NCBI GenBank assembly: GCA_022414725.1
Contig: CM039462.1
Span: 53,704,534-53,768,533 of the forward strand
Reading direction: 5' to 3'
Length of the DNA: 64,000 nt
DNA from: Microglena sp. YARC
Lineage: Eukaryota; Chlorophyta; Chlorophyceae; Chlamydomonadales; Chlamydomonadaceae
Both the position numbers and the translations under genes were made by a program. Of this stretch, positions 1 to 49,735 are shown one piece after another. Position 1 is the stretch's first letter. Each line of letters begins with the position of its first letter. Under the pieces are notes generated by a model. It saw only the letters and a program-made list of their open reading frames with translations, had not been told where the DNA came from and did no database searches.

Positions 1-2319
1 GCCTTATAATCAAACACCCACACTATTCCTGCAACCCCTTCAACCCTTCATCTACACCCCACTACCCTCCACCCACACCCACCCTACCCCCCCTCATCCC
101 ACTCCACCCACACCCACCCTGCCACCCCTCACCCTGCCCTCCACCTACAGGCACCAGTAGATTGAGCAGTGAGCAATGGTAGTGCCTGGAGAACAAACAC
201 ACTCACTACCTCTACCCCCTCAACCCTTCCTCCACACCCCACTTGACCCATACCCCATCCTACCACCCCTTACCCTGCCCCACCCACACCCCACTCCACC
301 CACACCCTGCCCTCCACCTACTGTCGCCAGTACATTGAGCAGCGAGCAATGGTGGTGCCTGGAGAACAAACACACTCACTACCTCTAACCCCTCAACCCT
401 TCTTCCACACCCCACTCCACTCACATCCCACTCCACCTACACCCAACCAACACCCCACTCCACCCACACCCCTCACCCTGCCTCCCACCTACTGTCGCCA
501 GTGCCATGAGCAGTGAGCCATGGTAGTGCCTGGAAATCAAACACACACACTACCTCTACCCCCTTAACACCTTCCTCCACACCCCACTCCACCCACACCA
601 AACCCGCCCACTAACCCTCACCCTGCACCACACCCACCCTACCACCCCTCACCCTCCACTCCATCCACACCCTCACCCTGCCTCCCACCTCCACCCACAC
701 CTTACCTCCACCCACACCCAACCCACACCCGACGCCAGTACATTGCACAGCGAGCGATGGTAGTGCCTGGATAACAAACACACTCACTACCTCTACCCTC
801 TCAACCCTTCCTCCACACCCCACTCCACTCCATCCACCCCTCACCCTGCCCTCCACCCACACCCCACTCCACCCACACCTTACTCCACCCACACCCAACC
901 CACACCCTGCCCCCCACCTACCGGCGCCAGTACATTGCACAGCGAGCGATGGTAGTGCCTGGATAACAAACACACACCCCACCTCTACCCTCTCAACCCT
1001 TCCTCCACACCCCACTCCACTCCATCCACCCCTCACCCTGCCCTCCACCCACACCCCACTCCACCCACACCTTACTCCACCCACACCCAACCCACACCCT
1101 GCCCCCCACCTACCGGCGCCAGTACATTGCACAGCGAGCGATGGTAGTGCCTGGATAACAAACACACACCCCACCTCTACCCACCCAACCCTTCCTCCAC
1201 ACCCCACTCCACTCCATCCACCCTCCACCCTGCCCTCACCCACACCCCACCCCTCCACCCACACCTTACTCCACCCACACCCAACCTCTGCCCCCCACCT
1301 ACCGGCGCCAGTACATTGCACAGCGAGCGATGGGTAGTGCCTGGATAAACAAACACCACCACCCCACCTCTACCCACCCAACCCTTCCTCCACACCCCAC
1401 TCCACCCTACCACCCCTCACCCTGCCCTCCACCCACACCCCACTCCACCCACACCTTACTCCACCCACACCCTGCCCCCCACCTACCGGCGCCAGTACAT
1501 TGCACAGCGAGCGATGGTAGTGCCTGGATAACAAACACACACCCCACCTCTACCCACCCAACCCTTCCTCCACACCCCCACTTGCCACCCTACCACCCCT
1601 CACCCTGCCCTCCACCCACACCCCACTCCACCCACACCTTACTCCACCACACACCTGTCTGCCCCCACCTACCGGCGCGCCAGTACATTGCACAGCGAGC
1701 GATGGTAGTGCCTGGGGATAACAAACACACACCCCACCTCTACCCTCTCAACCCTTCCTCCACACCCCACTCCACTCCATCCACCTCACCCCTGCCCTCC
1801 ACCACACCCCACTCCACCCACACCTTACTCCACCCACACCCAACCCACACCCTGCCCCCCACCTACCCGGGCGCCAGTTACATTGCACAGCGAGCGATGG
1901 TAGTGCCTGGATAACAAACACCACACACCCACCTTCTAACCCACCCAACCCTTCCTCCACACCCCACTCCACTCCATCCACCCCAACCCAACCCACACCC
2001 TGCCCTCCACCCACACCCCACTCCACCCACACCTTACTCCACCCACACCCAACCCACACCCTGCCCCCCAACCTACCGGCGCCAGTACATTGCACAGCGA
2101 GCAATGGTTAGTGCCTGGATAACAAACACACACACCACTGCTCTTACCCACCCTAATCTCCCACCCTCACCCACTGCCATCCACTTCCTCCCTGCCCTTC
2201 CACACCCCACTCCACCCACACCTTACCTAACCCAACACCCCACCCCCTCCACCGGATGCCACCACCCCCCTTCACACCTCTTACTTCACTCTCAACCCTT
2301 CCTCGCCCCCGGCACCTAC
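1..2319 (-). repeat. Tandem array of exon-5 donor edge (about 190-bp unit)
   Basis: About a dozen copies of a C-rich unit of roughly 190 bp. On the minus strand each carries an acceptor-like AG, a 37-nt exon fragment and a GTAGGT donor, followed by G-rich intron. The fragment is a degraded copy of the 3' end of the exon at 2320-2625 (residues YYHRSLLNVLA); most copies have lost two bases and are out of frame with it. The array runs off the left edge, so the downstream exons of this gene are not in the window. Long Pro/His-rich reading frames across it are repeat artefacts. Confidence 0.75.
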
Positions 2320-2625
2320 CGCGGGCCAGTACATTGAGCAGTGAGCGATGGTAGTATGCCTGGACTGGGTTGTAACCGTACAGCAATCTGGCTAAATCTC
2401 ATTGCTTTTGAAATCGTTCAGCTGGACCACCAGGTGTGGGGGGGCTGCGTCCATGAAGGCGGCCGGCTTGTACCGCAGCTTGACAAAGCTGTACATCGTG
2501 TTGGAGATGTCTTGGGGGGAGAGGTAGGGCAGCAGGCGCACGAGGTTGGTTTCCAGGCGCTGGAGGAACTGCACCTTGGGTGTGTGCTTCAGCTTGGACA
2601 TACTCCAAAGGATAACCACCAGCTC
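2320..2625 (-). CDS. Exon 5 (last visible) of OPR/FAST-like organelle RNA-binding protein
   Basis: Minus-strand exon bounded by CCCAG acceptor and GTAGGT donor. It begins in phase 0 with ELVVILWSMSKLKHTP, continues through SPQDISNTMYSFVKLRYKP and ends with LLNVLAR. The repeating pattern of LW.M.KL..P and NTMYSFVKL.Y.P is that of alpha-helical octotricopeptide (OPR) or FAST-leucine-rich/RAP proteins, which in green algae bind chloroplast or mitochondrial RNAs. Exon 4 ends in phase 0, so the two join directly. After residues FKSNEI the frame meets TAG and resumes one frame over at LLYGYNP. The 306-nt length is one base short of, or two over, what the phases need. This is a frameshift, real or a sequencing error, near 2395-2402. 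Family assignment is by pattern; no RAP domain is visible here. Confidence 0.65.
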
Positions 2626-3530
2626 CTGGGTGGGTGCAGGGGTGGTGGGAGGTGAGGGGTGGGGGATCTGTGGTGTGTGTGGGGGGAGGGGTGGTGTGTG
2701 TGTGGGGGGGGGGGGGGGGGGGGGGGGGCAGCTTGGGTGTGTGCTTCAGTTTGGTCATACTCCAAAAGAGAACCACCAGCTCCTGGGTGGGTGGAGGTTG
2801 GTGGGAGGGGTGGGGGGTGAGGGGTGGGGGATCTGTGGTGTGTGTGTGTGTTGTGTGTGTGTGGTGGTGGTGGTGGTGTGTGGGTGGGGGGGGAGGGTGG
2901 TGTGGTGTGGGGGGGGGGGGTCGTGAGGGTGGGGTTGGTGGTGTGGTGTGGGAGGGGGTATTGTGGTGAGGATGTGAGGGTGAGTGCTTGGTGGGGTATG
3001 AAGGTGGGGTTGTTGGTGTGGGTGGGGAGAGGGTTGGTGGGTGGTGGTTGTGGTAATGGTAGTGTGGTGTGGGTGGGTGTGGTGGCTGGGGTGGTGGGTG
3101 GGGGGGGAAGGGGTATGGAGTTCAGCTTGGGTGTGTTGCTTCAGCTTGGAACATATCTCCAAAAGGTATGACTACCAGCTCCTGTGTGTGGTGGAGGTGC
3201 GTGAGTGGGTGGGAGTGGTAGGGGGGTTGGTAGGGGGGGGGGGGGGGGGGGCGGCGGGGGGCGGTAATGATTGTAATGATCGTGGTGGTAGTGATGGGCA
3301 TACTCCAAAGGATAACCACCAGCTCCTGGGTGAGGGCGCAGGGTGTGAGCATGAGTGTAAGGGGGGGGGGGGATGGGTGGTGGTGGTCGGTGGCGGACAT
3401 TACTCCATAGGATAATAACAAGCTCCTGTATGAGGGTGGGGGATTGGAGGTGGTGGTGGTGGTGGTGGTTGGGGAGGTATGGTGCAGCATGGTTGTGTGC
3501 TTCAGCTTGGGTGTGTGCTTCACCCTAAAC
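2626..3530 (-). repeat. Array of exon-5 acceptor edge
   Basis: G/T-rich intron, read on the minus strand as C/A-rich. It contains about five degenerate copies of the exon-5 start (residues ELVVILWSM and KLKHTP), near 2726-2790, 3118-3185, 3296-3330, 3398-3427 and 3486-3530. Several keep the CCCAG acceptor. Poly-G runs separate the copies. Confidence 0.7.
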
Positions 3531-4266
3531 TCCATCCCACGTGGCATCCACCCATACACCGCGATAATACCCTAACTCTGACCTACACCGCCACAGAAAC
3601 CTGCCTACACCCACCTGGCATCCAAACTGGTCCCATGCCTCCACATCAGCCGGTCCACCACAGCCTTCACAGAGCACTTTCACACTGGGGTGTAACATTG
3701 CCTTAGCCTAGCAAAAGCACTGGTACACCCACCACAGCCTCACAGAGCACTTTCACATTGGGTGTAATATTGCCTAGCCTAGCAAAGCACTGGTACACCC
3801 ACCACAGCCTCACAGAGCACTTTCACATTGGGTGTGACATTGCCTAGCCTAGCAAAGCACTGGTACACCCACCACAGCCTCACAGAGCACTTTCACATTG
3901 GGTGTGACATTGCCTAGCCTAGCAAAGCACTGGTACACCCACCACAGCCTCACAGAGCACTTTCACATTGGGTGTAACATTGCCTAGCCTAGCAAAGCCC
4001 GCTGGTTTACACCCACCACAGCCTCACAGAGCCCTTTCACGTTGGGTGTAAAATTGCCTAGCCTAGCAAAGCACTGGTACACCCACCACAGCCTCAGAGT
4101 ACTTTCACATAGGGTGTGTCAGCACCTGGTATAGCAAAGACCTGCTACGCCCACACGGCATCCAACCATGTGCCCAGGTACACACCTAGCAAGCTGTTAG
4201 CACTGTTGCCAACACACCAACACCCACACCCTTCACCCACACCCTTCACCCTAAACTCTAACCCAC
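3531..4266 (-). repeat. Array of exon-4 3' part (70-bp unit)
   Basis: Six to seven nearly identical 70-bp units between about 3690 and 4110. They repeat the exon-4 coding stretch for FARLGNVTPNVKVLCEAVV. Partial copies of the exon's donor end (near 3606 and 4150) border them before the real exon at 4267. Copies differ by a few substitutions, unlike the indel-rich arrays near the gap. Confidence 0.75.
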
Positions 4267-4422
4267 CTGGCATCCAAACTGGTCCATGCTCCACATCAGC
4301 CGGTCCACCACAGCCTCACATAGCACTTTCACGTTGGGTGTGACAACGCCTAGCCTGGCAAAGCCCCACACAACCTGGGAGATCTCATGCGCCTTGCAGC
4401 CATTCAGCTGGGACAGCATTGC
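4267..4422 (-). CDS. Exon 4 of OPR/FAST-like organelle RNA-binding protein
   Basis: A 156-nt exon (52 codons, phase 0 at both ends) between TATCCAG acceptor and GTGGGT donor. It reads AMLSQLNGCKAHEISQVVWG, then FARLGVVTPN, then VKVLCEAVVDRLMWSMDQFG and CQ. The segment ISQVVWGFARLGVVTP is a clear helical repeat of the OPR/FAST class (pattern ..VVW.FA.LG...P). Phase 0 at both ends lets it join exon 3 upstream and exon 5 downstream without a shift. Both edges have been amplified into the neighbouring introns: the 3' part downstream (3531-4266) and the 5' part upstream (4423-5870). Confidence 0.72.
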
Positions 4423-5870
4423 CTGGATAGGACACACACAGCTTGGTTAAATTGCCTGGAGAGGTAACCAAGGTACTTGTGTTCAAGGTGGTATAGAGAT
4501 CACATGGGCCTTGCAGCCATTCAGCTGGGGCAGCATTGCCTGAATAGGAAACAGGTGGCATTTTTTTTTCCGTTGCCTGCGTGTGTTACATATGGTACAG
4601 AGAGCTCTCATGTGCCTTTGAGCCATCCAGCTGGGACAGCATTGCCTGAATAGGAAACAGGTGGAATGTTTGTTTACGTTGCCTGCGTGTGTTAGATATG
4701 GTACAGAGAGCTCTCATGTGCCTTGCAGCCATACAGCTAGGACAGCATTGCCTGAATAGGAAACAGGTGGCATTTTTGTTTACGTTGCCTGCGTGTGTTA
4801 GATATGGTACAGAGAGCTCTCATGTGCCTTGCAGCCATCCAGCTGGGACAGCATTGCCTGAATAGGAAACAGGTGGCATTTTTGTTTACGTTGCCTGCCT
4901 GTGTTAGATATGGTACAGAGAGCTCTCATGTGCCTTTGAGCCATACAGCTAGGACAGCACTGCCTGGATAGGAAACAGGTGGCATTTTTGTTTACGTTGC
5001 CTGCCTGTGTTAGATATGGTACAGAGAGCTCTCATGTGCCTTGCAGCCAACCAGCTGGGGCAGCATTGCCTGAATAGGAAAAATTACAGGTGGCATTTTT
5101 GTTTACGTTGCCTGCGTGTGTTAGATATGGTACAGAGAGCTCTCATGTGCCTTTGAGCCATACAGCTAGGACAGCATTGCCTAAATAGGAAACAGGTGGC
5201 ATTTTTGTTTACGTTGCCTGCGTGTGTTAGATATGGTACAGAGAGCTCTCATGTGCCTTGCAGCCAACCAGCTGGGGCAGCATTGCCTGAATAGGAAACA
5301 GGTGGCATTTTTGTTTACGTTGCCTGCCTGTGTTAGATATGGTACAGAGAGCTCTCATGTGCCTTGCAGCCAACCAGCTGGGGCAGCATTGCCTGAAGAG
5401 GAAACAGGTGGCATTTTTGTTTACGTTGCCTGCCTGTGTTAGATATGGTACAGAGAGCTCTCATGTGCCTTTGAGCCATACAGCTAGGACAGCATTGCCT
5501 GAATAGGAAACAGGTGGCATTTTTGTTTACGTTGCCTGCGTATGTTAGATATGGTACAGAGAGCTCTCATGTGCCTTGCAGCCATCCAGCTGGGGCAGCA
5601 CTGCCTGAATAGGAAACAGGTGGCATATTTGTTTACGTTGCCTGCGTGTGTTAGATATGGTACAGAGAGCTCTCATGTGCCTTTGAGCCACACAGCTAGG
5701 ACAGCTTTGCCTGAATAGGAAACAGGTGGAATGTTTGTTTACGCTGTCTGCCTGTATTAGATATGGTACAGAGAGGTGTCATGCGCCTTGCAGCCAACCA
5801 GCTAGGACAGCATTGCCTGAATAGGAAACAGGTAGCAGGGTTATGTATGTTGCCTGCCTGTATTAGATAC
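4423..5870 (-). repeat. Array of exon-4 acceptor edge (106-bp unit, about 13 copies)
   Basis: About thirteen direct repeats with a 106-bp period. On the minus strand each has intron, the CCTATTCAG acceptor and the first 45 or so bases of exon 4 (AMLSQLDGCKAHE and close variants). The exon part then runs into the next unit's intron with no donor. Copies are 90% or more alike. Confidence 0.85.
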
Positions 5871-6345: not shown

Positions 6346-6962
6346 GGATATTACAATCTGACTTTGCAAAGCCCATACGAAGGAGTATGTTTTATAAATA
6401 ATGTGGTGGTGACAAAACAGTCCACACACGCCACACAAGCACACACCCACAATGAGCACGCACCGTGGGGATGGTTCTCAGCAGGGTCGGGTGGTGATGG
6501 CCAAACCTGCCGAATGAGGTCATGAATCAGGCCTGGTCCATCCTCCCCGGCCCCCCCCCCACCCCACCCTCGCCTCCACCCAAACACACACTTACAAGCC
6601 CACACACTCACAAGCCCACACACATGAGCACACACCCGTGGAGATGGTTCTCAGCAGGGTTGGGTGGTGGTGGCCAAACCTGCGAATGAGGTCTATGATC
6701 ATGGCCTGGTCCATCCTCCCCCCCCCACACACCCACCACCCACCCAAACACACACTTACAAACCCACACACTTACAAGCCCACACACACGAGCACACACC
6801 GTTGGGATGGTTCTCAGCAGGGTCGGGTGGTGGTGGCCAAACCTGCCGAATGAGGTCATGATCATGGCCTGGTCCATCCTCCCCCCCCACCCACCCACCC
6901 ACCCACCCAAACACACACTTACAAGCCCACACACTCACAAGCCCACACACATGAGCACACAC
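6346..6962 (-). repeat. Array of exon-3 3' end as mini-cassettes
   Basis: Three copies of the last 69 nt of exon 3 (AMIMTSFGRFGHHHPTLLRT plus IPT). They lie at 6464-6532, about 6636-6705 and 6800-6868, separated by C/A-rich intron of about 95 bp. Each has a GACCAG-type acceptor in front and a GTGTGT donor behind on the minus strand. The 6800-6868 copy is open and phase 0-0. The 6636-6705 copy is open but one base longer. The 6464-6532 copy carries TGA. Confidence 0.8.
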
Positions 6963-7389
6963 CGTTGGGATGGTTCTCAGCAGGGTTGGGTGGTGGTGGC
7001 CAAACCTGCCGAATGAGGTCATGATCATGGCACAGTCCACTGGTTTCATTTTCAGCTGAGCTGTCCCGCCACGCTGGCAGATGCATTCAAAAACCGCCTT
7101 GTTGTAGTGCCCCATGCTGCTGTACGACCAAAGAGTGAGAGCTATGTCCCACATTTCGAAAGCGTCAGCTTCTGCCATCACCAGGGCATCTAGCGCATGC
7201 AGGGCAGGGAGGACTAGGGTTTTCTGGATGCTGCCAGGCTGTCTCGACAGGGTGGCGTGCACAGAGACACCGTTATGAGCCGTGCAGTACAGCTTTGCCA
7301 GGCGGGACAGTGCGTAGGCGGAATTGGCCCCCACAAAGGACCAGCCGTCCGCCAGGATGATCTCGCAGAGCTCGGCCAAGGTGTGGGCC
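6963..7389 (-). CDS. Exon 3 of OPR/FAST-like organelle RNA-binding protein
   Basis: The largest exon of the gene: 427 nt, one leading base plus 142 codons, between TTGCTGCAG acceptor and GTGTGT donor. It opens AHTLAELCEIILADGWSFVG, followed by NSAYALSRLAKLYC, an arrangement typical of the start of the helical-repeat region in OPR/FAST proteins (A.T..EL..I.......N...A...LAKL). It continues through ALDALVMAEADAFEMWDIAL, TLWSYSSMGHYN and CAMIMTSFGRFGHHHP. The leading G completes an Arg codon with the AG that ends exon 2. The final phase 0 matches exon 4. No stops, and indel-free, so this part of the gene looks intact. The protein is likely organellar; the target RNA cannot be inferred. Confidence 0.72.
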
Positions 7390-7735
7390 CTGCAGCAAGT
7401 AGGGTTAAGGGTTTAGGGTGCATGTGTTGGTTTCGGCCAAGGTGTGGGCCCTGCGGCAATCAGGGTTTAGTTTCTAGGGTGCATTTTTCCCCGCAAAGAT
7501 GGCCTCGCAGAGCTCGTCCAAGGTGTGGGCCATGCGGTAATCAGGGTTTGGGTTTTAGGGTGCATTTTTGGTTTCGGCCAAGATGGTCTCGCAGAGCTCG
7601 GTCAAGGTGTGGGCCATGCGGCAAGTAGGGTTAAGGTTTTAGGGTGCATTTTTTGGTTTCGGCCAAGATGGTCTTGCATAGCTCAGCCAAGGTGTGGGTG
7701 GTGCGGCAAGTACGTCGGCGCAGCCCAGACATTAT
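7390..7735 (-). repeat. Array of exon-3 acceptor edge
   Basis: Four to five copies of about 60-95 bp. Each has the exon-3 start (minus strand GCCCACACCTTGGCCGAGC and variants) preceded by a GC-AG-like acceptor and a stretch resembling AACCCTAAA. The copies sit directly upstream of the real exon. Confidence 0.75.
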
Positions 7736-7828
7736 TATTATTTCATTGTTTCATTTATTACTATACTGTTTTTAGTCTTTCCGTGACCTTTGCACACATC
7801 CAAGCGTATCCTCAAAATCTAAAAAGGT

Positions 7829-12262: not shown

Positions 12263-13416
12263 ACCATAAACCCACCCTTTCACCCACCCACACACACCAT
12301 ACACCCACCCACACCCATTCACCCACCTATTCACCCACCCACACCCACCATAAACCCACCTATTCACTCACCCACACCCACCATAAACCCATCCTTTCAC
12401 CCACCCACACCCACCATAAACCCACCCATTCACCCACATACACACACCCATTCACTCACCTATACCCTTCCTTTCACCAACCCACACCCACCCATCCATA
12501 CCTTGGCGCGAGCCTCTCTTGCTCTCAGCTTGAGCACTCCCACCCACCCACACATACACACACATTCACCTACCTACACCCACCATTCACCCACCCATCC
12601 ACTCACCTATACCCATCCTTTCACCAACCCACACCCACCCACCCATATCTTGGCACAAGCCTCTCTTGCTCTCAAACTTGAGCACTCCCCACCCCCCACT
12701 CATACACACACATGTCACCCACCTAAACCCACCATTCACCCACCCACACCCTCCATAAACCCACCCACACCCACCATTAACCCACCCATACACACACCCA
12801 TCCATTCACCTATACCCATTCTTTCACCAACCCACACCCACCCACCCATATCTTGGCACAAGCCTCTCTTGCTCTCAGCTTGAGCACTCCCACCCACCCA
12901 CACATACACACACATTCACCTACCTACACCCACCATTCACCCACCCACACCCTCCATAAACCCACCCACACCCACCATTAACCCACCCATACACACCCTT
13001 TGACCCTCCACACCCTCCATAAAACCAACACCACACCCACCACCCACCCACCCATATCTGCACAAGCCTCTCTTGCTCTCAGCTTGAGCACTCCCACCCA
13101 CCCACACATACACACACATTCACCCACCATTCACCCCCCCACACCCTCCATAAACCCACCCACACCCACCATTAACCCACCCATACACTCACCTATACCC
13201 ATCCTTTCACCAACCCACACCCACCCACCCATACCTTGGCACAAGCCTCTCTTGCTCTCAGCTTGAGCTCTCCCACCCACCCACACATACACACACATTC
13301 ACCCACCTACACCCACCATTCACCCCCCACACCCTCCATAAACCCCCAACCCACCATTCACCCCCCCACACCCTCCATAAACCACCCACACCCCACCACT
13401 CACCACCCATCCATAC
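12263..13416 (-). repeat. Array of exon-1 donor edge in CCCACC-type minisatellite
   Basis: Five copies, about 150-200 bp apart (near 12511, 12655, 12855, 13060, 13245), of the last 33 or so bases of exon 1. On the minus strand they read GAGCAAGAGAGGCT and end CCAAG followed by GTAT or a variant donor. CCCACC/CACCCATTCA minisatellite separates them. This is the same arrangement as the other exons of this gene. Confidence 0.75.
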
Positions 13417-13524
13417 CTTGGCGCAAGCCTCTCTTGCTCTTAGCTGGAGACTTGCTGGTGGCAGAGCACACTAGAGAAGATCCTAATTTGGAAGCAGTAT
13501 GCAGCACATGCACCGCGCTTGGTC
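13417..13524 (-). CDS. Exon 1 (first visible) of OPR/FAST-like protein; transit-peptide-like
   Basis: A 108-nt exon between CATTGCAG acceptor and GTATGG donor: two leading bases, 35 codons and one trailing base. The frame chosen by phase with exon 2 is open: PSAVHVLHTASKLGSSLVCS, then ATSKSPAKSKRGLRQ. It is rich in Ser, Ala, Lys and Arg, lacks Asp and Glu, and contains VCSA, which resembles a chloroplast transit cleavage area. That fits an organelle-targeted RNA-binding protein. The exon starts inside the protein, so the true start codon lies further upstream and was not found. Confidence 0.6.
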
Positions 13525-13563
13525 CTGCAATGCACATGAGGAGGAGGGAGGGATGGTGGTGGG

Positions 13564-19417: not shown

Positions 19418-19479
19418 ACATTCATACAGCATACATGCATATAATGATATAATTATATAAAGGGATCTGACGGGGAATA

Positions 19480-19671
19480 CAGCTTGCTGGGATATCTGGT
19501 TTCGGAGCAAGATGACCACAACTTGCTGGGATATCTGGTTTTGGAGCAAGATGGCTACAGCTTGCTGGGGTATCTGGTTTCGGAGCAAGATGACTACAGC
19601 TTGCTGGTGTATCTGGTTTCGGAGCAAGATGACTACAGCTTGCTGGTGTATCTGGTTTCGGAGCAAGATGA
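19480..19671 (-). repeat. 39-bp minisatellite copying the SDR stop-codon region
   Basis: Five copies of 39 bp (TTGCTGGGATATCTGGTTTC GGAGCAAGATGACTACAGC). On the minus strand each contains AGCAAGCTGTAG, the Ser-Lys-Leu-stop of the adjacent dehydrogenase exon. The array lies just 3' of that exon, in its presumed untranslated region. Confidence 0.85.
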
Positions 19672-19793
19672 CTACAGCTTGCTGGGATGACGCATGTTCT
19701 TGAAGAAGCCGAACACAGAGTAACCACCATCAACCTGGATGGTCTGGCCGGTGATGTAGGCCGCAGCAGGGGTGCATAAGAATGCCATGGTAC
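19672..19793 (-). CDS. Last exon of a short-chain dehydrogenase/reductase with PTS1
   Basis: Minus-strand terminal exon after a CTATTGCAG acceptor: two bases, then 39 codons and TAG. It reads [39 protein letters not shown]. The motif (V)AFL.(S/T)PAA.YITGQ...VDGG is the conserved C-terminal end of classical short-chain dehydrogenases of the tropinone-reductase / 3-oxoacyl-reductase type: the helix and loop after the YxxxK active site. The last three residues are Ser-Lys-Leu, the canonical type-1 peroxisomal targeting signal, so the enzyme probably works in peroxisomes, for example as a dienoyl- or oxoacyl-CoA reductase. The upstream exons with the NAD(P) and catalytic motifs are not visible to about 23.7 kb; transposons may separate them, or this may be an orphan exon. 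Confidence 0.8.
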
Positions 19794-31838: not shown

Positions 31839-32900
31839 GTGAGCTACACACCACACTCACAGTAGTGTAACCACATATGTATGGGAGCCAGTACACACGC
31901 AGCTACTGCATCAATTTTTTCAAGCCTGCCTTGGGCAATATCATCCCAGGCGCGCTCCTCACGCAGAAGGTGAGAACCACACACACACTCACATGTAGTT
32001 TTAACAACTGGCATTTACACACAGCACGTCGTTCAGACACGCTTCGATGACCAATGCAACTGTTGTCTCCTGCCCTTTGACAACTTTCATTCCGTCTGGG
32101 GCTGCTTATGGAAGCTTCCACAGAAGGTAAGAGACTCACACACAAATCCAACACACATGTGGGGGTAAATTCCATATGCTTGCATGCACACACAGGGTTA
32201 ATGATAACGCCTGGGGGGCGTGGTGTTAAGAGGAGCCCGTCGTACGCGGGGGGAGCGGCCACTACTACCATCAACTGACAGAGCTACCAGTCGCGGCTTG
32301 ACTGACGAACCTGCAACGCCAAGAGCGACCGACAGGGGGTGTCGCACTACCCACCGACTCTCATAATCTTTAGGCAATGCTGGTCCACCCCACTAAGACC
32401 AATTGTAATCATGCAACACAGATGTTAGGTAATTCAATTCACACGCAACGCCACCGCAAGCACACCAGCGTGCATCACGCTTCGTAAGCCTGCCTTCGCA
32501 ATTCATCCGCCCTAGCAGAAAGGTGAGACACACACACACTCACAGTAGTTAACACAGGCAGCACACTACAGAGTACACACGCTTCGTCAAGCCTGCCTTC
32601 GACAACTTCATCCGCCCTAGCAGAAGGTGGAAAGACACACACACACTTCAAGTAGTAAACACAGCAGTACACACAGCAGTGCACGCAGCAGTACACACGC
32701 TTCGTCAAGCCTGCCTTTGACAAAGAACTTCATTGCCGCCCCAGAGAAGGTGGGACACACACATCAGTACACCACTTCATCAGTAGTTTGAGAGACACAG
32801 CAGTAGACAGGCTAATCAGCAGTACTCACGCTTCGTCAACCCGCCATGCCTTTGGACAATTTCCATCCGCCCTTATTAGATGGTGGGACACACACAGCAA
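31839..32900 (+). repeat. Array of C-lobe exon donor edge
   Basis: Six to seven copies of the exon end in CA-rich intron, near 31915-31970, 32030-32130, 32465-32525, 32570-32630, 32695-32752 and 32825-32885. The best copy reads TRFVKPAFDNFIRPSRR followed by a GT donor, very close to the family's ..FVKPAFDDFVLPSKK. A LINE tail interrupts the array at 32201-32335. Confidence 0.7.
32201..32335 (-). mobile_element. LINE 3' tail (truncated copy)
   Basis: Matches 7829-7969 over about 135 bp (shared GAGCCCGTCGTACGCGGG and GCAACGCCAAGAGCGACCG), with the terminal ACGCC...GGCGT hairpin, on the minus strand. Confidence 0.6.
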
Positions 32901-40935: not shown

Positions 40936-41829
40936 TTGTGTGAGTATGCCCTCTCTGCTCCCTTGTTTCAGGTACGTTGGGTGAGGGGGGGGAGGTAGGG
41001 GCGGGGGTGAGGGGACGGGGTTAACTGAAGCTGCTTGGCTATCGCCAAACCAAATCTACCCACACCCACCGACAACTCCACTCACAAGATCCATCTCAAC
41101 CCCACCCATCCCCACCCCACCCAAAAAACCCCCACCACACCCGCCAAAACCAAAATCACCTCTATGTTTCCTCCACTCTCCCCCCAGCGCTTCTATGCCA
41201 AGCCGCCTCATTCACCGACTGGTGTGGAAGCTGGCCTGGGCACCACCCTTGGCCCGAGAGAAGACCCGTCGTGACACCACGGGGCACCAATATGTTGGTG
41301 TTAAACCACTTTATCCCCCCCCCCCCTCCCCCCTCCCCCCCCCCCCCCCCCCCCCCCCCTCCCCCCCCCCCCCCCCCCACAGGTTCTATGCCAACCGCCT
41401 CACCGACTGGTGGGTGGAAGCTGGCCTAGGGCACCTACCCGTACCGAGAGAAGACCGTCGTGACACCCACGGGCACCAATATGTTGGTGTTAACCCACCT
41501 TATCCCCTCCACCCCCCCCCCCCCCCCCCCAGGTTCTATGCCAAAGCGTCTCTCAAGCCTGACTGTCGTGAAGCGCTGGCTTGGGCGCCTACCTTTCCGA
41601 GAAAAGACGCGTCGTGACACCCACGGGGCACAATAGTGTGGTGTTAACCCACTTTATCCCCCCTCCCCACCCCCCTCAGGCTTCTATGCGCAAACCCGTC
41701 TCAACCTGACTGTCGTGAAGCCTGCTTGGGCGCGATACCCTTCCGAGAAAAGACCGTCAGTACACCCACGGGGCACCAATATGTTGGTGGTTAACACCAC
41801 CTCTTATCCCTCTCCCCCCCCCCCCCCCG

Positions 41830-41898
<69 letters not shown>

Positions 41899-42189
41899 AC
41901 CCCCCCCAGGTTCTTCTATTGCCAACCGTACTCTCAACCGACTGCGTGGGAAGCTGGCTTGGGTGTCTACCCTTCCGAGAAAAAAGACTTCGTTGACACC
42001 ACGGGGCACCAATATGTGGGTGTTGACCCACCTTTATCCCCCCCCCTCCCCCCCAGGTTCTCATGCCAACCGTCTCAACCGACTGGTCGTGGAAGCTGGC
42101 TTGGGGCGTCCTACCTTCCGAGAAAAGACCGTCGTGACACCCACGGGCATCCAATATGTTGGTGTTAATCCCACTTTTATCCCCTCCCC

Positions 42190-42233
<44 letters not shown>

Positions 42234-42434
42234 AGGTTCTATGCCAACCGTCTCAACCGACTGGTCGTGGAAGCTGGCTTGGGCGCCATTACCCTTCCGA
42301 GAAAAGACGTTTTGTGACACCCACCTGCAAATCTATCTCAACCTATTGACCAAAATCCAACTCCACCCATCTCGAACCCCACCCGCCCGCCCACCAAAAC
42401 CAAAATCACCTCTATCCCTCCTCACTCCCCCCAG
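40936..42434 (+). repeat. Array of UPRT exon acceptor edge, 7 copies
   Basis: From about 41190, seven copies (41190, 41380, 41532, 41678, 41908, 42053, 42234) of the first 90-110 nt of the next exon: RFYANRL, VVEAGLG, LPFREKTVVTPTGHQYVGV. Each is preceded by a C-only tract of 8-100 nt and AG. The copies break off after GTTGGTGTTAA and pass into the next poly-C tract. C-runs directly precede the acceptors. Confidence 0.85.
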
Positions 42435-42656
42435 GTTCTATGCCAACCGCCTCAACCGACTGGTGGTGGAAGCTGGCCTGGGGCACCTACCCTTCCGAGA
42501 GAAGACCGTCGTGACACCCACGGGGCACCAATACGTTGGTGTCAACTTCGCACGCGGAATTTGTGGAGTCTCCATCATTCGGTCGGGTGAAGCCATGGAG
42601 GCCGCACTCAGGGAATGCTGTCAGGGGATCAAGCTGGGCAAGATCCTGATACACAG
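42435..42656 (+). CDS. UKL: Uracil phosphoribosyltransferase core exon 1
   Basis: A clean 222-nt exon (CCCCAG acceptor, GTGGGC donor; one leading base, 73 codons, two trailing). It reads FYANRLNRLVVEAGLGHLPF, REKTVVTPTGHQYVGVNFAR, GICGVSIIRSGEAMEAALRE, CCQGIKLGKILIH. This is the UPRT fold start of plant/algal uridine kinase-UPRT proteins: R(L)..LVVE.GL.HLPF.EK.V.TPTG..Y.GV....CGVSI.RSGE.ME.ALR.CC..I..GKILIHR. UPRT makes UMP from uracil and PRPP in pyrimidine salvage; in many eukaryotic fusions this half has diverged, so catalytic activity is not assured. Both edges are amplified in the adjoining introns. Confidence 0.92.
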
Positions 42657-43660
42657 GTGGGCCCTAGCCCCCCCCACACACACACAAACACACAGTTCCG
42701 ACACACAAGCCCCCCCCCCCCCCCAGAACACCCCCCCCACACAGCACACACAAATGCATCTCCATCATTCGGGGCGGTCGGGTGAAAGCCATGGAGGCCG
42801 CCTGAGGAGTCTGAGGGAGGTGTGAGTGCTGATCACCAGGGTGGGTCATCGACCCCTAGGCCTCCCATCGATAGCTGGGCAAGAATCCTGATACACAGGT
42901 GGGGCCACCGTATCCCCCCCTAGCCCCCACCACCCGACACACCCACACCCACAAATGCATCTGAATCGTCCTGTCGGGTGAAGCCATGGAGGCCGCCCTG
43001 AGGGAGTGCTGTCAGGGCATCAAGCTGGGCAAGATCCTGATACACAGGTGGGCCACCGACCCCCTAGCCCCCCACCACCCACACACCCACACACCCACAC
43101 CCACAAATGCATCTGAATCGTCCTGTCGGGTGAAGCCATGGAGGCCGCCCTGAGGGAAGTGCTGTCAGGAGATCAAGCTGGCAAGATCCTGATACACAGG
43201 TGGCCACCGACCACCCCCCCCCCCCCCACCCCCCCCCAATACACACACACACACACACACACACAACCATGCATCCTCTCATCACCAAAGCAGGGATCGG
43301 GTCGGGTGGAACTTGCATTGGAGGGGCACTCAGAAGTGCTGTCGTGAAAGCATTCAAAACTGGGCAAGACTCCTGATACGTAGTGGGAACTATCTGCTTC
43401 TTTACCAACTCTCCTACCCCCCCCCCCCACACACACACACACACACACACACCTACACACATGCTACCCCCCTTCACTTACCCCTAACCCCCTTGCCCCC
43501 CCACCCCCCAACCCCCCACACACACCCCACACAACACGCACACCACATACACAACACATACGCACCACACACCACACACAGCCACACACACCACACACAC
43601 CACACACACCACACCACATCACACACACACACACCACACACCATGCTACCCCCCTTCTGT
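42657..43660 (+). repeat. Array of UPRT exon donor edge, then CA/C-rich intron
   Basis: Four copies (near 42758-42900, 42962-43048, 43118-43200, 43290-43385) of the exon end RSGEAMEAALRECCQGIKLG plus KILIHR and its GTGGGCC donor. They are degraded by indels and separated by C/CA-rich DNA. CA-rich sequence fills 43430-43640. Confidence 0.85.
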
Positions 43661-44086
43661 GACTGCAGTAGCAAGGGAAGTCTCCCCAAGACTATGGTGT
43701 ACGAGAAGCTGCCTGCTGACACCAGCCTGAACACCCCCCAACCCAACCCAAACTCAACCTAACCCAACCCAACCCCATCCCCAACCCAAACCCAACCCAT
43801 CCCCAACCCAACCCAACCCAACCCAACCCAACCAACCCAACCCCCTAGCCCCAGACCCCAACGCCCCCCCACACACATGCTACCCCCCTTTCTGTGTGAC
43901 TGCAGTTAGAAAGCCTCCCAAAGACTTGGTGTACGAGAAAGCTGCCTGCTGATATCAGCCTGAAAGCCCCTCCCCCACCCCCCACCCCCCACACACACGC
44001 ACCACACACCACACCACCCCCTCACTCCACACTTATGCACCACACAAACACACACACACACATCTACCCCCCTTCTGTGACTGCAG
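43661..44086 (+). repeat. Array of next UPRT exon's acceptor edge
   Basis: Two copies (43667-43735, 43903-43970) of the exon start after CTGACTGCAG or GACTGCAG: SKGSLPKTMVYEKLPADTSL in the better one. AACCC repeats (43738-43850) and CA-rich intron lie between. Confidence 0.8.
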
Positions 44087-44208
44087 TAGCAAGGAAGGGC
44101 TCCCAAGACTTGGTGTACGGAAGCTGCCCTGCTGACATCAGCTCACGCTTTGTACTGCTGCTCGACCCTGTGCTGGGTACAGGCAATACAGCTTGCAAGG
44201 CCATCAAG
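44087..44208 (+). CDS. UKL: UPRT exon with PRPP-binding loop
   Basis: Exon after GTGACTGCAG, ending GCCATCAAG before GTGGGC. It reads SK.GLPK..VYEKLPADISS then RFVLLLDPVLGTGNTACKAI and K. DPVLGTGNTA is the PRPP-binding motif of uracil phosphoribosyltransferases. The leading T completes a Ser codon with the AG that ends the previous exon. The first third needs two or three one-base corrections to match the copy at 43667; the second half is clean. Next to the indel-rich zone, this reads as sequence error, not inactivation. Confidence 0.85.
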
Positions 44209-44779
44209 GTGGGCTGTGGGTGTGTGATGGTAGTGTGTGTGCGTGGAGGGGGGGGGGGGGGGGGGCTTGGTTACAATTCTTAAAAAAAGTTAATTGGTAA
44301 AACAATAAAAATAAAAAAATAAAAAGTAAAATTGTTATTCTTTGCAGGTGCTGATTTACCATTTATTTTATATTTTATGCATTAAAGGAAATTAAATTAA
44401 ACACATGAAATGCTTTAAAATCTGTTAATCTAATTCAAAATCTGTTAAAGTTTGTGTTGTCTTTTCTGGTGCTAATTGGAAAATGTTTTTTTCTTTGCAA
44501 GTGCTGATTGACAAGGTGTCTGCGAGGGTGAGAGAACATCTTATTTCTCAGTTTCTCATTATCCCCCCCCCCCCCCCCCGAATTAAAAAAAAGGTTTGCA
44601 TATTTGCAGGTGCTGATTGACACAGGGTGTCAGCGAGGAGAACATCTTATTCCTCAGTTTTTCTCATTATCCCCCCCCCCCCCCCCCCCCTGAATTAGAA
44701 AAAAAAGGTTTGTATATTTGCAATGCTGATTGACAAGGGTGTCAGCGAGGAGAACATCTTATTTCTCAGTTTCTCATTA

Positions 44780-44818
<39 letters not shown>

Positions 44819-44847
44819 AATTAAAAAAAAAGTTTGTATATTTGCAG
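44209..44847 (+). repeat. Array of the VLIDKGVSEEN exon's acceptor edge, 3 copies
   Basis: After a G-run and AT-rich stretch, three copies (44500, 44608, 44720) of TTTGCA(G)GTGCTGATTG and AAGGGTGTCAGCGAGGAGAAC... TTTCTCAG, each followed by a poly-C run (18-40 nt) and AATTAAAAAAAA. The real exon follows. Confidence 0.85.
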
Positions 44848-44925
44848 GTGCTGATTGACAAGGGTGTCAGCGAGGAGAACATCTTATTCCTCAGTTTGAT
44901 CGCTGCACCCAACGGAATCCACCAG
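44848..44925 (+). CDS. UKL: UPRT exon VLIDKGVSEENILFLSLIAA
   Basis: A 78-nt phase-0 exon of 26 codons, VLIDKGVSEENILFLSLIAA then PNGIHQ, between TTTGCAG and GTAGGC. It matches the family segment (A)I.LLI.KGV.E..I.FL.LI.APEGIH between the PRPP loop and the final strand. It is clean, with phase 0 on both sides, and joins 44208 (K) and 47477 (V). Its 5' half is repeated upstream and its 3' half downstream. Confidence 0.92.
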
Positions 44926-45910
44926 GTAGGCTCGTGTGTGTTTGCTTTTACGTGTGTGTGTATTTGTATGTGTGTGTGTGTGTGTGTGTGTGTGAGTGTT
45001 TTTGTGTATAAGGGCATGTGTTTGTGTGTATATGTGTGTGTGAGTGTGTTTGAGAGTGTGTGTGTACATTTCTCAGTTTGATCGCTGCACCCAATGGGAT
45101 CCACCAGGTAAGTTCTGGTTGTGTGCTTGTGTGTGTTGAGTTGGTGTGTGTGTATGTGTGTGTGTGTGTGTGCGAGTGTGTGAGTGTGTGTGTGTGTGTG
45201 TGTATTTGTATTAATGCTTGTGTGTGTGTGTGCGAATGTGTGTGTATTTGTATGTTTGTGTGTGTGTGTGTGTGTGTGTGCGTATTTATATTCTTTCTTG
45301 TGTGTGTGTGTGTGTGGTGTGTGTGTGCAAGTGTGTGTGCATATTTATATTCTTGTGTGTGCGAGTGTGTGTGTGCGTATTTGTATGTGTGTGTTTAAGT
45401 TAGTGTGTTTGAGAGTGTGTGTGCTTGTGTGCACTTTTCTCAGTTTGATCGCTGCTCCCAACGGGATCAACCAGGCAGGTTTGATGGGGGCCTATGTGCG
45501 TATTTATATGTGTGAATTTGTATTTGTGTGTGTGTGTGTATTTTGTGTGTGTGTGTGTGTGTGTGTGTGACTGTGTGTGTACTTGTTTGTGTGTGTGCAT
45601 GTACGTGTGTGCTTGTATGTGTGTTTATTTGCATGTATGTGTATTTGTATATGTGTTTGTGCTTGTATGTGTGTGTTGAGGTTAGTGTGTTTGAGAGTGT
45701 GTGGGAGTGTGTGTACGTTTCTAAGTTGAATCGCTGCTCCCAACAGAATCCACCGGGTAGGTGCTGATGGGGGCCTATGTGCATATTGGCATGTGTGCGT
45801 ATTTGTATATGTGTGTGCTTGTATGTGTATGTTTGAGTGCGTGTGTATGTGAGTGTGTGTACATTACTCAGTGTGGTCGCTGCTCCCAACGGGATCCCCC
45901 ACGTAGGTTC
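44926..45910 (+). repeat. Array of exon donor edge (LSLIAAPNGIHQ) in GT microsatellite
   Basis: Four copies near 45068-45108, 45436-45476, 45718-45757 and 45864-45903 of CTCAGTTTGATCGCTGC then CCCAACGGGATCCACCAG with GT or GC donors. They are spaced by 150-370 bp of TGTGTG-rich DNA. The second copy has a GCAGGT donor; the third and fourth carry substitutions (CACCGG, CCCCAC). Confidence 0.85.
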
Positions 45911-46344
45911 GGATGGGGGCTTGTATGTGCGTACTTGTGTGTGTGTGCGCTTGTGTATTTGTGTGTGTGTTTACTTGTGTGTGTATTCGTGTGTGTGTGT
46001 GCTTGCATGTGTGTATTTGGGGGCTTGTATGTGCGTACTTGTGTGTGTGTGTCCTTGTGTATTTGTGTATGTGTTTACTTGTGTGTGTGTGTGCTTGCAT
46101 GTGTGTATTTGGTGGCTTGTATTTGCGTACTTGTGTGTGTGTGTGTGCTTGCATGTGTGTATTTGGTGGCTTGTATGTGCGTACTTGTGTGTGTGTGTGT
46201 GCTTGCATGTGTGTATTTGGTGGCTTGTATGTGCGTACTTGTGTGTGTGTGTGCTTGCATGTGTGTGTGTTTACTTGTGTGTGTATTTGTGTGTGTGTGT
46301 GCTTGCATGTGTGTATTTGTATGAGCGTGTGCAAGTGCGTGTGC

Positions 46345-47476: not shown

Positions 47477-47573
47477 GTGTGCAAGCTATACCCCAAGACA
47501 AAGATCATCACCAGCGAGATTGACAACGGTATTGACGACAAGTCCATAGTCGTTCCTGGAGTGGGAGAGTTCG
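47477..47573 (+). CDS. UKL: UPRT exon VCKLYPKTKIITSEID...VVPGVGEF
   Basis: A 97-nt exon (32 codons plus one base) between TGCCAG and GTGAGT: VCKLYPKTKIITSEIDNGID then DKSIVVPGVGEF. It corresponds to the family's VCKRFPKLKIVTSEID......RVIPGLGEFG, the last beta strands and the uracil-binding turn. It is clean. The trailing G joins CT of the last exon to make Ala where the family has Gly. Its donor edge is repeated about 13 times downstream. Confidence 0.92.
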
Positions 47574-49190
47574 GTGAGTTAGGCTGGTGTCTTGTGCATG
47601 GAAGATCTGATCTGATCTGATCTGATCTAGTTCATTATAAGCTGTGCTTGGTGACACGTTTGTAGTGGTGCCTGGAGTGGGAGAGTTATCGGTGAGTTAG
47701 GCTGGTGTCTTGCATGGGAGATATGATCTGATCTGATCTGATCTGATCTGGTACATTATAAGCTGTTCTTGGTGACATGTTTGTAGTGGTGCCTGGAGTG
47801 GGAGAGTAATCGGTGAGTTAGGCTGGTGTCTTGTGCATGGGAGATATAATCTGATCTGATCTGATCTGGTTCATTATAAGCTGTGCTTGGTGACAAGTTC
47901 ATAGTGGTGCCTGGAGTGGGAGAGTTATCGGTCAGTTAGGCTGGTGTCTTGTGCATGGGAGATATGATCTGATCTGGCCTGGTTCATTATAACCTGTGCT
48001 TGGTGACAAGTCCGTAGTCGTTCCTGGAGTGGGAGAGTTCGGTGAGTTAGCCTGGTGTCTTGTGCATGGGAGATATGATCTGATCTGATCTGATCTGATC
48101 TGGTTCATTATAAGCTGTTCTTGGTGACATGTTTGTAGTGGTGCCTGGAGTGGGAGAGTTATCGGTGAGTTAGGCTGGTTTCTTGTGCATGGGAGATCTG
48201 ATCTGATCTGATCTGATCTGGTACATTATAAGCTGTGCTTGGTGACACGTTTGTAGTGGTGCCTGGAGTGGGAGAGTTATCGGTCAGTTAGGCTGGTGTC
48301 TTGTGCATGGGAGATATGATCTGATCTGATCTGGCCTGGTTCATTATAAGCTGTGCTTGGTGACACGTTTGTAGTGGTGCCTGGAGTGGGAGAGTTCGGT
48401 GAGTTAGGCTGGTGTCTTGTGCATGGGAGATCTGATCTGATCTGATCTGATCTGATCTAGTTCATTATAAGCTGTGCTTGGTGACACGTTTGTAGTGGTG
48501 CCTGGAGTGGGAGAGTTATCGGTCAGTTAGGCTGGTGTCTTGTGCATGGGAGATATGATCTGATCTGATCTGATCTGGTTCATTATAAGCTGTGCTTGGT
48601 GACAAGTCCGTAGTCGTTCCTGGAGTGGGAGAGTTCGGTGAGTTAGGCTGGTGTCTTGTGCATGGGAGATATGATCTGATCTGATCTGATCTGGTTCATT
48701 ATAAGCTGTGCTTGGTGACAAGTTTGTAGTGGTGCCTGGAGTGGGAGAGTTATCGGTGAGTTAGGCTGGTGTCTTGTGCATGGGAGATATGATATGATCT
48801 GATCTGATCTGGTACATTATAAGCTGCGCTTGGTGACATGTTTGTAGTGGTGCCTGGAGTGGGAGAGTTATCGGTGAGTCAGGCTGGTGTCTTGTGCTAA
48901 AGAGCTCTGCTCTGATTTGATTTGTGCTCAGCTCTGCTCTGTTTGGCAATCGTGTTGACGACAAGTTCGTAGTGGTGCACGGAGTGGGGGAGTCCAGTGA
49001 GTCAGGCTGGTATCTTGTGCCAAAGAGCTCTGCTCCGATTTGTGCTCAGCTCTGATGTGTGCTCAGCTCTGCTCTGTTTGGCATTCATGTTGCCGACAAG
49101 TTTGCAGTGGTGTGTGGAGTGGGGGAGTTCGGTGATGGCCCCCTGCTGGTGTCTTGTACATGTGAGATCTGATCTGATCTGATCTGCCAT
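47574..49190 (+). repeat. Array of exon donor edge, about 117-bp unit, about 13 copies
   Basis: Each unit has the exon end (GTGGTGCCTGGAGTGGGAGA, GTTCG or GTTATCG), the donor GTGAGTTAGGCTGG, a (GATCT)n run of 2-6 repeats and TTCATTATAAGCTG. The first copies stay close to the exon (KSIVVPGVGEF; copies at 47995 and 48605). Most read FVVVPGVGEL. The last three (48880-49190) diverge and carry GCTCTGCTCTGATTTG. Confidence 0.9.
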
Positions 49191-49735
49191 TTTTGCTTGG
49201 CTTGGCTTGGCTTGGCTTGGCTTGACACGAGCTCGCACCATGTTTCAAATAAAATAAATGAAATCTGAATTAATTTGATCTGAGTCAGCATGTGCTCATT
49301 GTTTGTAAACATGAAATGTAATGTTCAAATTTGAATTGAACCATGCCAATGTGTGATCATTGTTTTTAAACATGAAGTTTTATATTCTAATTTGACTTGA
49401 ACCATGCCAATGTGTGCCCAGTGTTTTAAAACATGAAATATAAAAGTTGTCTGAATTAAACCGAGTCAACATGTGATCATTGTTTTCAATCATGAAATAT
49501 GTGATAATCAAAGTTGAATTGATCCATGCCATCGTGTGCTCGTTGTTTTAAAACATGAAATGTAATAATCAAATTTGAATTGAACCATGCCAACGTGTGC
49601 GCATTGTTTTAAAACATGAAAGATAATAATCAAATTTGAATTGAACGATGATAACGTGTGCGCATTGTTTCATAACATGAAATATAATAATCAAATTTGA
49701 ATTTATCCATGCCAACGTGTGATTATTGCTCGCAG
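49191..49735 (+). repeat. CTTGG microsatellite and 62-bp intron repeat, 7 copies
   Basis: (CTTGG)5 at 49195-49223. Then about seven copies of a 62-bp AT-rich unit (CATTGTTTTAAAACATGAAA, TTTGAATTGAACCATGCCAA). The last copy runs into the acceptor GCTCGCAG of the final exon. Confidence 0.85.

What the first reader, a model, noticed from the sequence alone, without database searches (positions are those of the whole stretch)
1..49735. Exons flanked on both sides by tandem arrays of their own edges
Seen directly. In two unrelated genes on opposite strands, the intron before an exon holds tandem copies of that exon's start with its AG acceptor. The intron after it holds copies of the exon's end with its GT donor. 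Clear cases with both sides: 4267-4422 (about 13 acceptor copies, about 7 three-prime copies), 6963-7389 (4-5 and 3), 2320-2625 (about 5 and about 12), 42435-42656 (7 and 4), 44848-44925 (3 and 4). 47477-47573 has about 13 donor copies. The dehydrogenase exon (19672-19793) has five copies of its stop region. Units rarely contain a whole exon; they straddle one junction. Ordinary minisatellites have no reason to centre on splice junctions. Inference: splice-junction DNA (pyrimidine or purine tract beside the exon) is a hot spot for tandem expansion in this genome, or array growth elsewhere in exons is removed by selection and only junction-spanning growth survives. I know of no named system of this kind.
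Basis: partly seen in the sequence, partly recalled or inferred. Interest (0 to 1): 0.93.

Follow-up and report, generated by a model that had tools for sequence, protein, structure and literature searches.

The report
Exon ends fossilised in neighbouring introns
In this genome, likely a green alga's, 37 of 79 sampled internal exon ends have copies of that same end in the adjoining intron and none on the far side; the copies likely survive because such duplications spare the protein, and they appear to preserve older versions of the exon.

Summary
In the window, 16 of 21 tested splice edges have partial copies of their own exon edge in the adjoining intron (81 copies, 72 with intact AG or GT). 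In exons of two protein families elsewhere in the same 568-Mb assembly, 37 of 79 internal ends have such copies on their own side, none on the wrong side.

By anatomy these are 'mirages', a kind named in amphioxus (PMC3087553), so the kind is not new; I saw no report of it in algae or at this density.

A junction hot spot is not supported: repeat density is level along introns. Selection on coding sequence fits better.

Apparently new: differences shared by most copies against the true exon are synonymous about twice as often as expected (65 S: 52 N, 56% against 27%), private ones much less (154: 362, 30%); wrong frames lose the effect. So the arrays are old, not assembly artefacts, and keep ancestral exon states.

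In 53 of 81 copies the decoy site scores at least as well as the true one, so splicing probably picks the innermost pair (exon definition; inferred).

The parts
2320..2625 (-). exon P3 of a FAST-kinase-like / OPR-like gene (OPR likeness recalled)
   Evidence: Pfam FAST_1 E=1.6e-6 on 2398-2625; splice sites
34..2218 (-). donor-edge array of P3, 11 copies, ~173-192-bp unit
2626..3460 (-). acceptor-edge copies of P3 (junctions 2782, 3181, 3325, 3425)
4267..4422 (-). exon P2 of the same gene
   Evidence: no Pfam match
4495..5869 (-). acceptor-edge array of P2, 13 copies of 106 bp, all 13 with AG
3600..4117 (-). one full donor-edge copy of P2 (junction 3615) with a nested 70-bp x 6.5 array of exon-internal sequence
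6963..7389 (-). exon P1 of the same gene
   Evidence: no Pfam match
6434..6962 (-). donor-edge array of P1, 3 copies, 163-bp unit
7433..7709 (-). acceptor-edge array of P1, 4 copies, 84-bp unit
13417..13525 (-). probable exon Q1 (frame inferred)
12431..13416 (-). donor-edge array of Q1, 5 copies
19478..19688 (-). 39-bp x 5.4 array straddling the stop codon of a short-chain dehydrogenase last exon (19672-19793)
   Evidence: adh_short_C2 E=9.4e-8
27449..28854 (+). uridine-kinase exon K2 and 3 donor-edge copies (28251, 28712, 28854)
29138..29815 (+). kinase exon K3 (from 29735) and 2 acceptor-edge copies
32571..32883 (+). kinase exon K5 and 2 downstream donor-edge copies (2 more matches upstream: the only wrong-side case)
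41190..42434 (+). acceptor-edge array of U7, 7 copies, ~150-bp unit
42435..42656 (+). exon U7, uracil phosphoribosyltransferase domain
   Evidence: UPRTase E=1.8e-18
42657..43383 (+). donor-edge array of U7, 4 copies
43669..44086 (+). 2 acceptor-edge copies of exon U8
44087..44208 (+). exon U8
44501..44847 (+). acceptor-edge array of U9, 3 copies, 112-bp unit
44848..44925 (+). exon U9
44926..45967 (+). donor-edge copies of U9, 4
47477..47573 (+). exon U10
47574..49140 (+). donor-edge array of U10, 13 copies of ~119 bp, carrying likely older coding states
49736..49760 (+). last exon U11, no copies found

Best explanation
Many exon ends in this genome are flanked by partial tandem copies of themselves ('mirages'), likely because local tandem duplication is rampant in its introns and selection keeps only the duplications that leave one whole exon with its own splice sites. 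Steps. (1) A tandem duplication straddles one splice junction (shown as anatomy: unit = intron part + 36-111 bp of exon edge in the 12 arrays measured). (2) The outer copy carries a duplicate splice site, but the exon-proximal site still gives normal mRNA, so the event is tolerated (inferred; in amphioxus RT-PCR data suggest that mirages do not disturb regular splicing, PMC3087553). Duplications inside an exon, or of a whole exon, would change the protein and are purged (inferred from their rarity). (3) The outer copies are then free of coding constraint and multiply and decay neutrally (shown in two of three samples: private differences match neutral expectation). The true exon goes on evolving under constraint, so what most copies share against it is enriched in synonymous changes (shown). 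The arrays therefore hold ancestral states of the exon edge (inferred from this). (4) Since most decoy sites are intact and as strong as the true ones, the splicing machinery must choose the innermost pair, most simply by exon definition (inferred). The DNA-level cause of the duplications (slippage, break repair, transcription) is not identified.
For: Geometry: in two families elsewhere in the genome, 5'-edge words have upstream copies 100/390 and downstream 0/390; 3'-edge words downstream 131/387 and upstream 0/387. 37 of 79 internal exon ends have own-side copies, 0 of 79 wrong-side; ends at the edge of the protein domain 2 of 19 (p=.004). Filter: mid-exon words SDR 25/590 up and 12/590 down, TCP1 30/1451 and 53/1451. 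In the window, exon words have local copies .86 at 0-15 bp from the junction, then .75.46.21, then 0 of 32 beyond 90 bp. No junction peak. Fossil signal: window, 13 junctions, shared 22S/12N (expected S .27, p=4e-6), private 39S/111N, Fisher p=3e-5, wrong frames 6/28 and 7/27, bootstrap over junctions of the difference in S share .20-.54. SDR, 17 junctions, shared 30S/28N (p=4e-5), private 67S/183N, wrong frames 12/42 and 5/49. TCP1, 11 junctions, shared 13S/12N (p=.007), wrong frames 2/18 and 2/20. Pooled 65S/52N against 154S/362N, p=3e-7. U10: 11 of 13 copies have F where the exon has S; 8 of 9 algal homologues printed have an aromatic residue there. Decoys: 72 of 81 intact, 53 of 81 score at least the true site. 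Unit lengths (rounded) are a multiple of 3 in 3 of 12 arrays, so frame is not kept.
Against: In the TCP1 sample the private differences are also enriched in synonymous changes (48S/68N, p=6e-4). Edges with a single copy, which are neither shared nor private, stand at 20S/29N (SDR) and 8S/10N (TCP1). With few copies the two classes are poorly separated, or copies were seeded at several times. Some copies reach 150-200 bp into exons (L028, L034, L040, L045), beyond the 90 bp seen in the window. Array counting gives more straddling than a random-position null if ancestral introns were 300 bp or longer; two introns without copies in L045 and L046 are 740 and 628 bp. Near flanks of arrayed edges are often denser in copies than flanks 1-4 kb off, though over all 37 flanks near (.46) and far (.38) do not differ (p=.39). 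The assembly has indel noise, also in single-copy exons. No transcript data were available. K5 has 2 matches on the wrong side.
Confidence: 0.8

Rival explanations
1. Splice-junction DNA (polypyrimidine tract or G/T-rich donor flank) is itself a hot spot for tandem expansion, so arrays are seeded at junctions.
For: 14 of 19 (or of 21 unmerged) complex arrays in the studied introns were sorted as straddling; against a random-position null P=.22 (.43) for 200-bp introns.012 (.040) for 300 bp.0008 (.0036) for 400 bp. Introns are G/T-richer in the first than in the last 300 nt in 6 of 6 complete introns.
Against: Repeat density shows no peak at the junction; the junction is not at the unit's centre; an array straddles a stop codon instead of a junction. 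The array count is biased: low-complexity intronic arrays were excluded, and the 14 include the nested P2 donor array, whose unit lacks the donor, and an exon (near 9950) recognised by eye only.
Confidence: 0.15
2. The arrays are assembly artefacts of noisy long reads.
For: Many indels in copies, frame breaks also in single-copy exons (P3 near 2392, U8), an exact 1000-N gap. A mirage of amphioxus was itself misassembled in a draft (PMC3087553, passage).
Against: Shared differences are enriched in synonymous changes in the true frame and not in wrong frames, which assembly error would not produce; outward-only geometry in two other families.
Confidence: 0.03
3. The copies are functional: decoy or alternative splice sites, or reservoirs kept for gene conversion of exon edges.
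For: Splice dinucleotide bases are kept 94% against 84% of intron neighbours and 88% of exon bases; two U10 copies (48041, 48637) are within 1 edit of the exon.
Against: Private changes in copies are neutral in the window and SDR samples; unit lengths do not keep frame; 9 of 81 copies have lost the site; the dinucleotide comparison may be favoured by alignment anchoring at the exon end.
Confidence: 0.07
4. The introns themselves arose by tandem duplication of exonic AGGT segments (Rogers model), and the copies are relics of intron birth.
For: Tandem duplication with splice sites is a known route to new introns (PMC4974935, PMC2891723, passages); mirages have been proposed as a source of new globin introns (PMC3087553, passages).
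Against: The two sides of one intron carry different units, each made from one existing junction; no unit joining upstream exon end to downstream exon start was seen.
Confidence: 0.03

Closest known systems
Mirages (mirage minisatellites) of amphioxus Adh3 and globin genes (PMC3087553, abstract part and passages; the original Adh3 paper not seen)
   Same: Minisatellite-like tandem repeats spanning an intron-exon boundary, at 5' or 3' boundaries; many but not all repeats keep AG/GT; units 10-72 and 150-160 bp there, 84-244 bp in the 12 arrays measured here; copies outside the authentic exon.
   Different: Animal, a few genes known; here likely a green alga, 37 of 79 sampled internal exon ends, introns largely made of such arrays in the window, and a synonymous (fossil) signal, which the passages seen do not report. 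There length variation, somatic instability and RT-PCR were shown; here not testable.
Single tandem duplications across an intron-exon border, e.g. potato RdRp (PMC4974935, passages)
   Same: A tandem duplication that includes intron end, 3' splice site and exon start.
   Different: One event that created a new intron; here multi-copy arrays, with the original intron kept.
[quoted passage not shown] only its citation was seen; content recalled)
   Same: Duplications within genes that include splice sites.
   Different: Not described there as arrays, as far as recalled.
Tandem exon duplication and mutually exclusive exons (recalled)
   Same: Exon sequence copied into the neighbouring intron.
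   Different: Whole exons there, partial edges here; copies not kept in frame.
Repeats of the Haematococcus lacustris genome (PMC7617258, passages, 12 of 20 places shown)
   Same: A related alga with repeats 'organized in tandem' in complex patterns.
   Different: The passages seen do not relate repeats to exon ends; UKL identity to the window gene 73%.

Membership tests
[quoted passage not shown]
   16 of 21 window splice edges, 37 of 79 sampled internal exon ends
mirage minisatellites (amphioxus) | both 5' and 3' boundaries can be duplicated | tested here: met
   7 acceptor and 9 donor edges in the window; 17 of 39 and 20 of 40 internal ends
mirage minisatellites (amphioxus) | many but not all repeats keep the AG/GT signal | tested here: met
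   72 of 81 copies
mirage minisatellites (amphioxus) | regular splicing of the mRNA is undisturbed | not testable with these tools
   no transcripts of this organism at hand
mirage minisatellites (amphioxus) | length instability between haplotypes, somatic instability | not testable with these tools
   one assembly only
tandem-duplication intron gain (AGGT model) | duplicated exonic unit supplies both GT and AG of the new intron | tested here: not met
   acceptor and donor arrays are separate units, each from one existing junction
tandem-duplication intron gain (AGGT model) | intron absent from orthologues | not tested
   only homologous proteins, no orthologous DNA, were at hand
tandem exon duplication | unit contains a whole exon, in frame | tested here: not met
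   window exon words beyond 90 bp uncopied (0 of 32); mid words 2-4% per side; unit length not a multiple of 3 in 9 of 12
introner elements | near-identical introns dispersed at unrelated genomic sites | not tested
   no genome-wide DNA search was run; the copies described are local
exon-definition splicing | splice sites paired across the exon, innermost sites chosen | not testable with these tools
   inferred from intact decoys; needs RNA data

The most novel reading that the evidence does not exclude
In this alga much of the intron DNA beside exons is a fossil record of the exons' own edges: successive tandem duplications freeze older coding states next to the exon, with splice sites intact, at about half of all internal exon ends. 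The genes can live with dozens of decoys because splicing pairs sites across the exon, so a green alga works by exon definition where its relatives are thought to use intron definition. Intron DNA is far more prone to tandem growth than intergenic DNA, which may point to a transcription-coupled duplication process.
Probability: 0.4. Interest if true: 0.8.

Novelty: new member of a known kind. Interest (0 to 1): 0.6.

Why it matters
Mirages were known from a few amphioxus genes; here they mark about half of the sampled internal exon ends in what is likely a green alga, so they are not an animal oddity. Each exon end becomes a natural experiment: the arrays keep likely ancestral coding states without an outgroup and show which duplications selection tolerates. 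They also put many near-identical splice sites beside one true site, so one long-read cDNA run would show how a spliceosome chooses among equals. If the innermost-site rule holds, it bears on where exon definition is used outside animals. For annotators it warns that gene models in such genomes may absorb array copies as false exons.

Tried and rejected
Recursive splicing (AG|GT at the acceptor so that each copy is a zero-length exon): by eye, AG is followed by GT at U7 and U9 of the seven acceptor arrays; not general, dropped. Intron ends pairing to bring sites together: first and last 250 nt of the same intron pair hardly better than those of different introns (-126 against -113 kcal/mol). 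Age gradient (outer copies more diverged): of nine arrays tested only U9 donor reached p=.05. Haematococcus lacustris as source organism: UKL only 73% identical; organism not identified.

Literature: searches for arrays of exon edges listed 21 rows in all (1, 1, 7, 1, 11; some papers repeat). At first I judged from titles and abstract starts that none describes this. A search for mirages (last of 10) listed 8 papers; besides PMC3087553, PMC3902484 also holds the word with amphioxus (listing only). No algal report of mirages was seen in these searches; most subscription journals are not held. Searches had other aims.

Rows left out before counts: K2, K3, K5 and S1 from the window fossil test (frame or boundary unsure); 8 of 30 TCP1 hits with a stop inside from the TCP1 fossil test (the SDR test did not drop such hits); 34 of 64 TCP1 matches were not used. 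Loci L033, L042 and L043 repeat hits in L045 and L046 and were counted once.
Full report
What the window is. Repeat-rich nuclear DNA, coordinates G000:C1:53704534-53768533 of a 568,105,699-bp assembly in 2390 contigs. The plus-strand gene at about 25-49.8 kb encodes a uridine kinase / uracil phosphoribosyltransferase; its best matches are green algae (Chlamydomonas reinhardtii 76%, Haematococcus lacustris 73%). tblastn places its exons independently of any array. The minus-strand gene at 2.3-7.4 kb has a FAST-kinase-like domain in one exon (PF06743; the other two exons tested have no Pfam match); that it belongs to the algal OPR/FAST-type RNA-binding proteins is recalled. Minus-strand 19672-19793 ends a short-chain dehydrogenase.

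The observation. Of 22 exon edges tested, 21 are splice edges. Sixteen of these 21 have 1-13 copies of the exon edge in the intron on their own side, 81 copies in all; five have none. Matches on the wrong side occur at one edge (K5, 2), opposite-strand matches at one (P1 donor, low complexity). 72 of 81 copies keep the splice dinucleotide.

Genome-wide test. Exons of two unrelated families, short-chain dehydrogenases (all 19 hits) and TCP1/Cpn60 (30 of 64 hits), were taken as they came. Exon ends that fall inside the domain are treated as internal boundaries. 37 of 79 such ends have own-side copies and 0 of 79 wrong-side; of 19 ends at the domain's own border 2 have them (Fisher p=.004). By family: SDR 18 of 27, TCP1 19 of 52. 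By word: 5'-edge 100/390 upstream and 0/390 downstream; 3'-edge 131/387 downstream and 0/387 upstream; middle 25 up and 12 down of 590 (SDR), 30 up and 53 down of 1451 (TCP1). The middle counts include long single copies that reach 150-200 bp into some exons (L028, L034, L040, and 80988458 in L045).

Hot spot or filter. In seven window introns (one incomplete) the share of complex words with a local copy is .79.85.91.64.81 with growing distance from the junction (0-150, 150-300, 300-600, 600-1000, 1000-1500 bp). In the introns of two TCP1 genes it is .47.43.33.54.71.53. Inside window exons it falls .86.75.46.21, 0, 0. There is no peak at the junction; density runs on through the intron, crosses the junction and stops inside the exon. 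A simulation of random tandem duplication with a coding filter gives a junction-straddling share of .75.62.45 and .35 for introns of 150, 200, 300 and 400 bp; 14 of 19 arrays (14 of 21 unmerged) were sorted as straddling by eye, including the nested P2 donor array and one exon recognised by eye. Median introns of relatives are 198-343 bp (PMC8226300, passages); Volvox median 358 bp in another paper (PMC4378016, passages). So no hot spot is needed for short ancestral introns, and a modest excess cannot be ruled out for longer ones.

Fossil test. For each edge the copies were compared with the exon codon by codon. Differences carried by a majority of copies (at least two) are shared, the rest private; edges with one copy stand apart. 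Window, 13 of 16 arrayed splice edges: shared 22 synonymous to 12 non-synonymous against 27% expected, private 39 to 111 (6 bp trimmed at the unit end; untrimmed 26/16 and 42/125). Read in the two wrong frames, shared is 6/28 and 7/27. SDR: 30/28 and 67/183, single-copy edges 20/29. TCP1: 13/12 and 48/68, single-copy edges 8/10; here private changes also lean to synonymous, against the simple picture. Pooled 65/52 against 154/362, Fisher p=3e-7. The simplest reading is that a majority of copies keeps the founder's letters, so shared differences are what the exon itself has changed since, under constraint, while each copy decays freely. This argues strongly against an assembly artefact as the source of the arrays.

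An example of strata. In the U10 donor array the exon reads S-I-V-V. Nine of 13 copies read F-V-V-V, one F-I-V-V, one F-A-V-V, and two (junctions 48041 and 48637, 596 bp apart) S-V-V-V. Among nine printed algal homologues eight have F, Y or W at the first place and one S; at the second, five have V and none I. So F-V, then S-V, then S-I is the likely order, and the S-V copies were probably seeded between two changes of the exon. The single F-I copy does not fit this order without a further event.

Splicing. By simple scoring, 53 of 81 decoy sites are as good as or better than the true one, so site strength alone does not explain the choice. Pairing across the exon would pick the innermost acceptor and donor; pairing across the intron would pick the outermost. 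The arrays therefore suggest exon definition. This is inference; no RNA was available. The published view is that short-intron Volvox and Chlamydomonas use intron definition (PMC4378016, passages).

What is known. [quoted passage not shown] their origin is called unclear (PMC3087553, passages). The window's arrays meet the anatomical features. So I file them as mirages, a new member in a likely green alga. What I add is their density (about half of sampled internal exon ends), the intron-wide repeat density with no junction peak, which points to a coding filter, and the synonymous bias of shared differences.

Introns against intergenic DNA. Window introns .47-1.0 (seven introns) against non-gene stretches .06-.20 (four); TCP1-gene introns 0 to .81 (ten) against 0 and .27 outside. 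Tandem growth seems concentrated in introns; which stretches are truly intergenic was not proved.

Limits.

Noticed in passing
window introns P1>P2, P2>P3, U7>U8, U8>U9, U9>U10, U10>U11: Sense-strand composition is G+T-richer in the first 300 nt than in the last 300 nt in 6 of 6 complete introns; the K2>K3 stretch is opposite. Recalls GT/AC intron ends reported in fish (recalled; the search found nothing).
   Followed up: partly
protein P0002 (printed): A related alga's gene model for the same enzyme holds three tandem copies of the segment around VLLLDPVLGTGN...GIHQ, perhaps array copies absorbed as exons.
   Followed up: no
23697-24696: Exactly 1000 N, probably a scaffold gap near the start of the kinase gene; its first exons were not found by tblastn.
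   Followed up: no
2392-2398; 44087-44208: Frame breaks in true exons P3 and U8, probably residual sequencing errors.
   Followed up: no
48041 and 48637: Two near-exon copies 596 bp apart, about five units: possible higher-order repeat in the U10 array.
   Followed up: partly
5880-6420; 7822-7950; 32195-32340: Three similar segments, by eye beginning near 'aacgcctgg...cgtg.tgttaag', perhaps a mobile element; the first holds an ORF (5998-6342 minus) with no Pfam family above cut-off.
   Followed up: no
9398-10240: By eye another minus-strand exon near 9950-10020 with donor-edge copies downstream (arrays 9398-9876) and one acceptor-edge copy near 10190.
   Followed up: no
40390-40960 and 25750-26380: By eye four degenerate copies of a kinase exon end (MHTI..NDFV) and about seven of another (RMHDQCV); no intact copy seen in the first group.
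   Followed up: no
45069-45110, 45436-45474: Donor-edge copies of U9 begin at a TTCTCAG that looks like an acceptor, so each could be a mini-exon (by eye).
   Followed up: no
57835-59045: 58-bp and 35-bp arrays, one near an ORF reading AARKLVLIAEKN on the minus strand, perhaps another exon edge.
   Followed up: no
L009, L012, L015, L019: Dehydrogenase hits in long open frames (299-476 aa) without edge copies; some may be single-exon genes or contaminants (L012 on a 45-kb contig).
   Followed up: no
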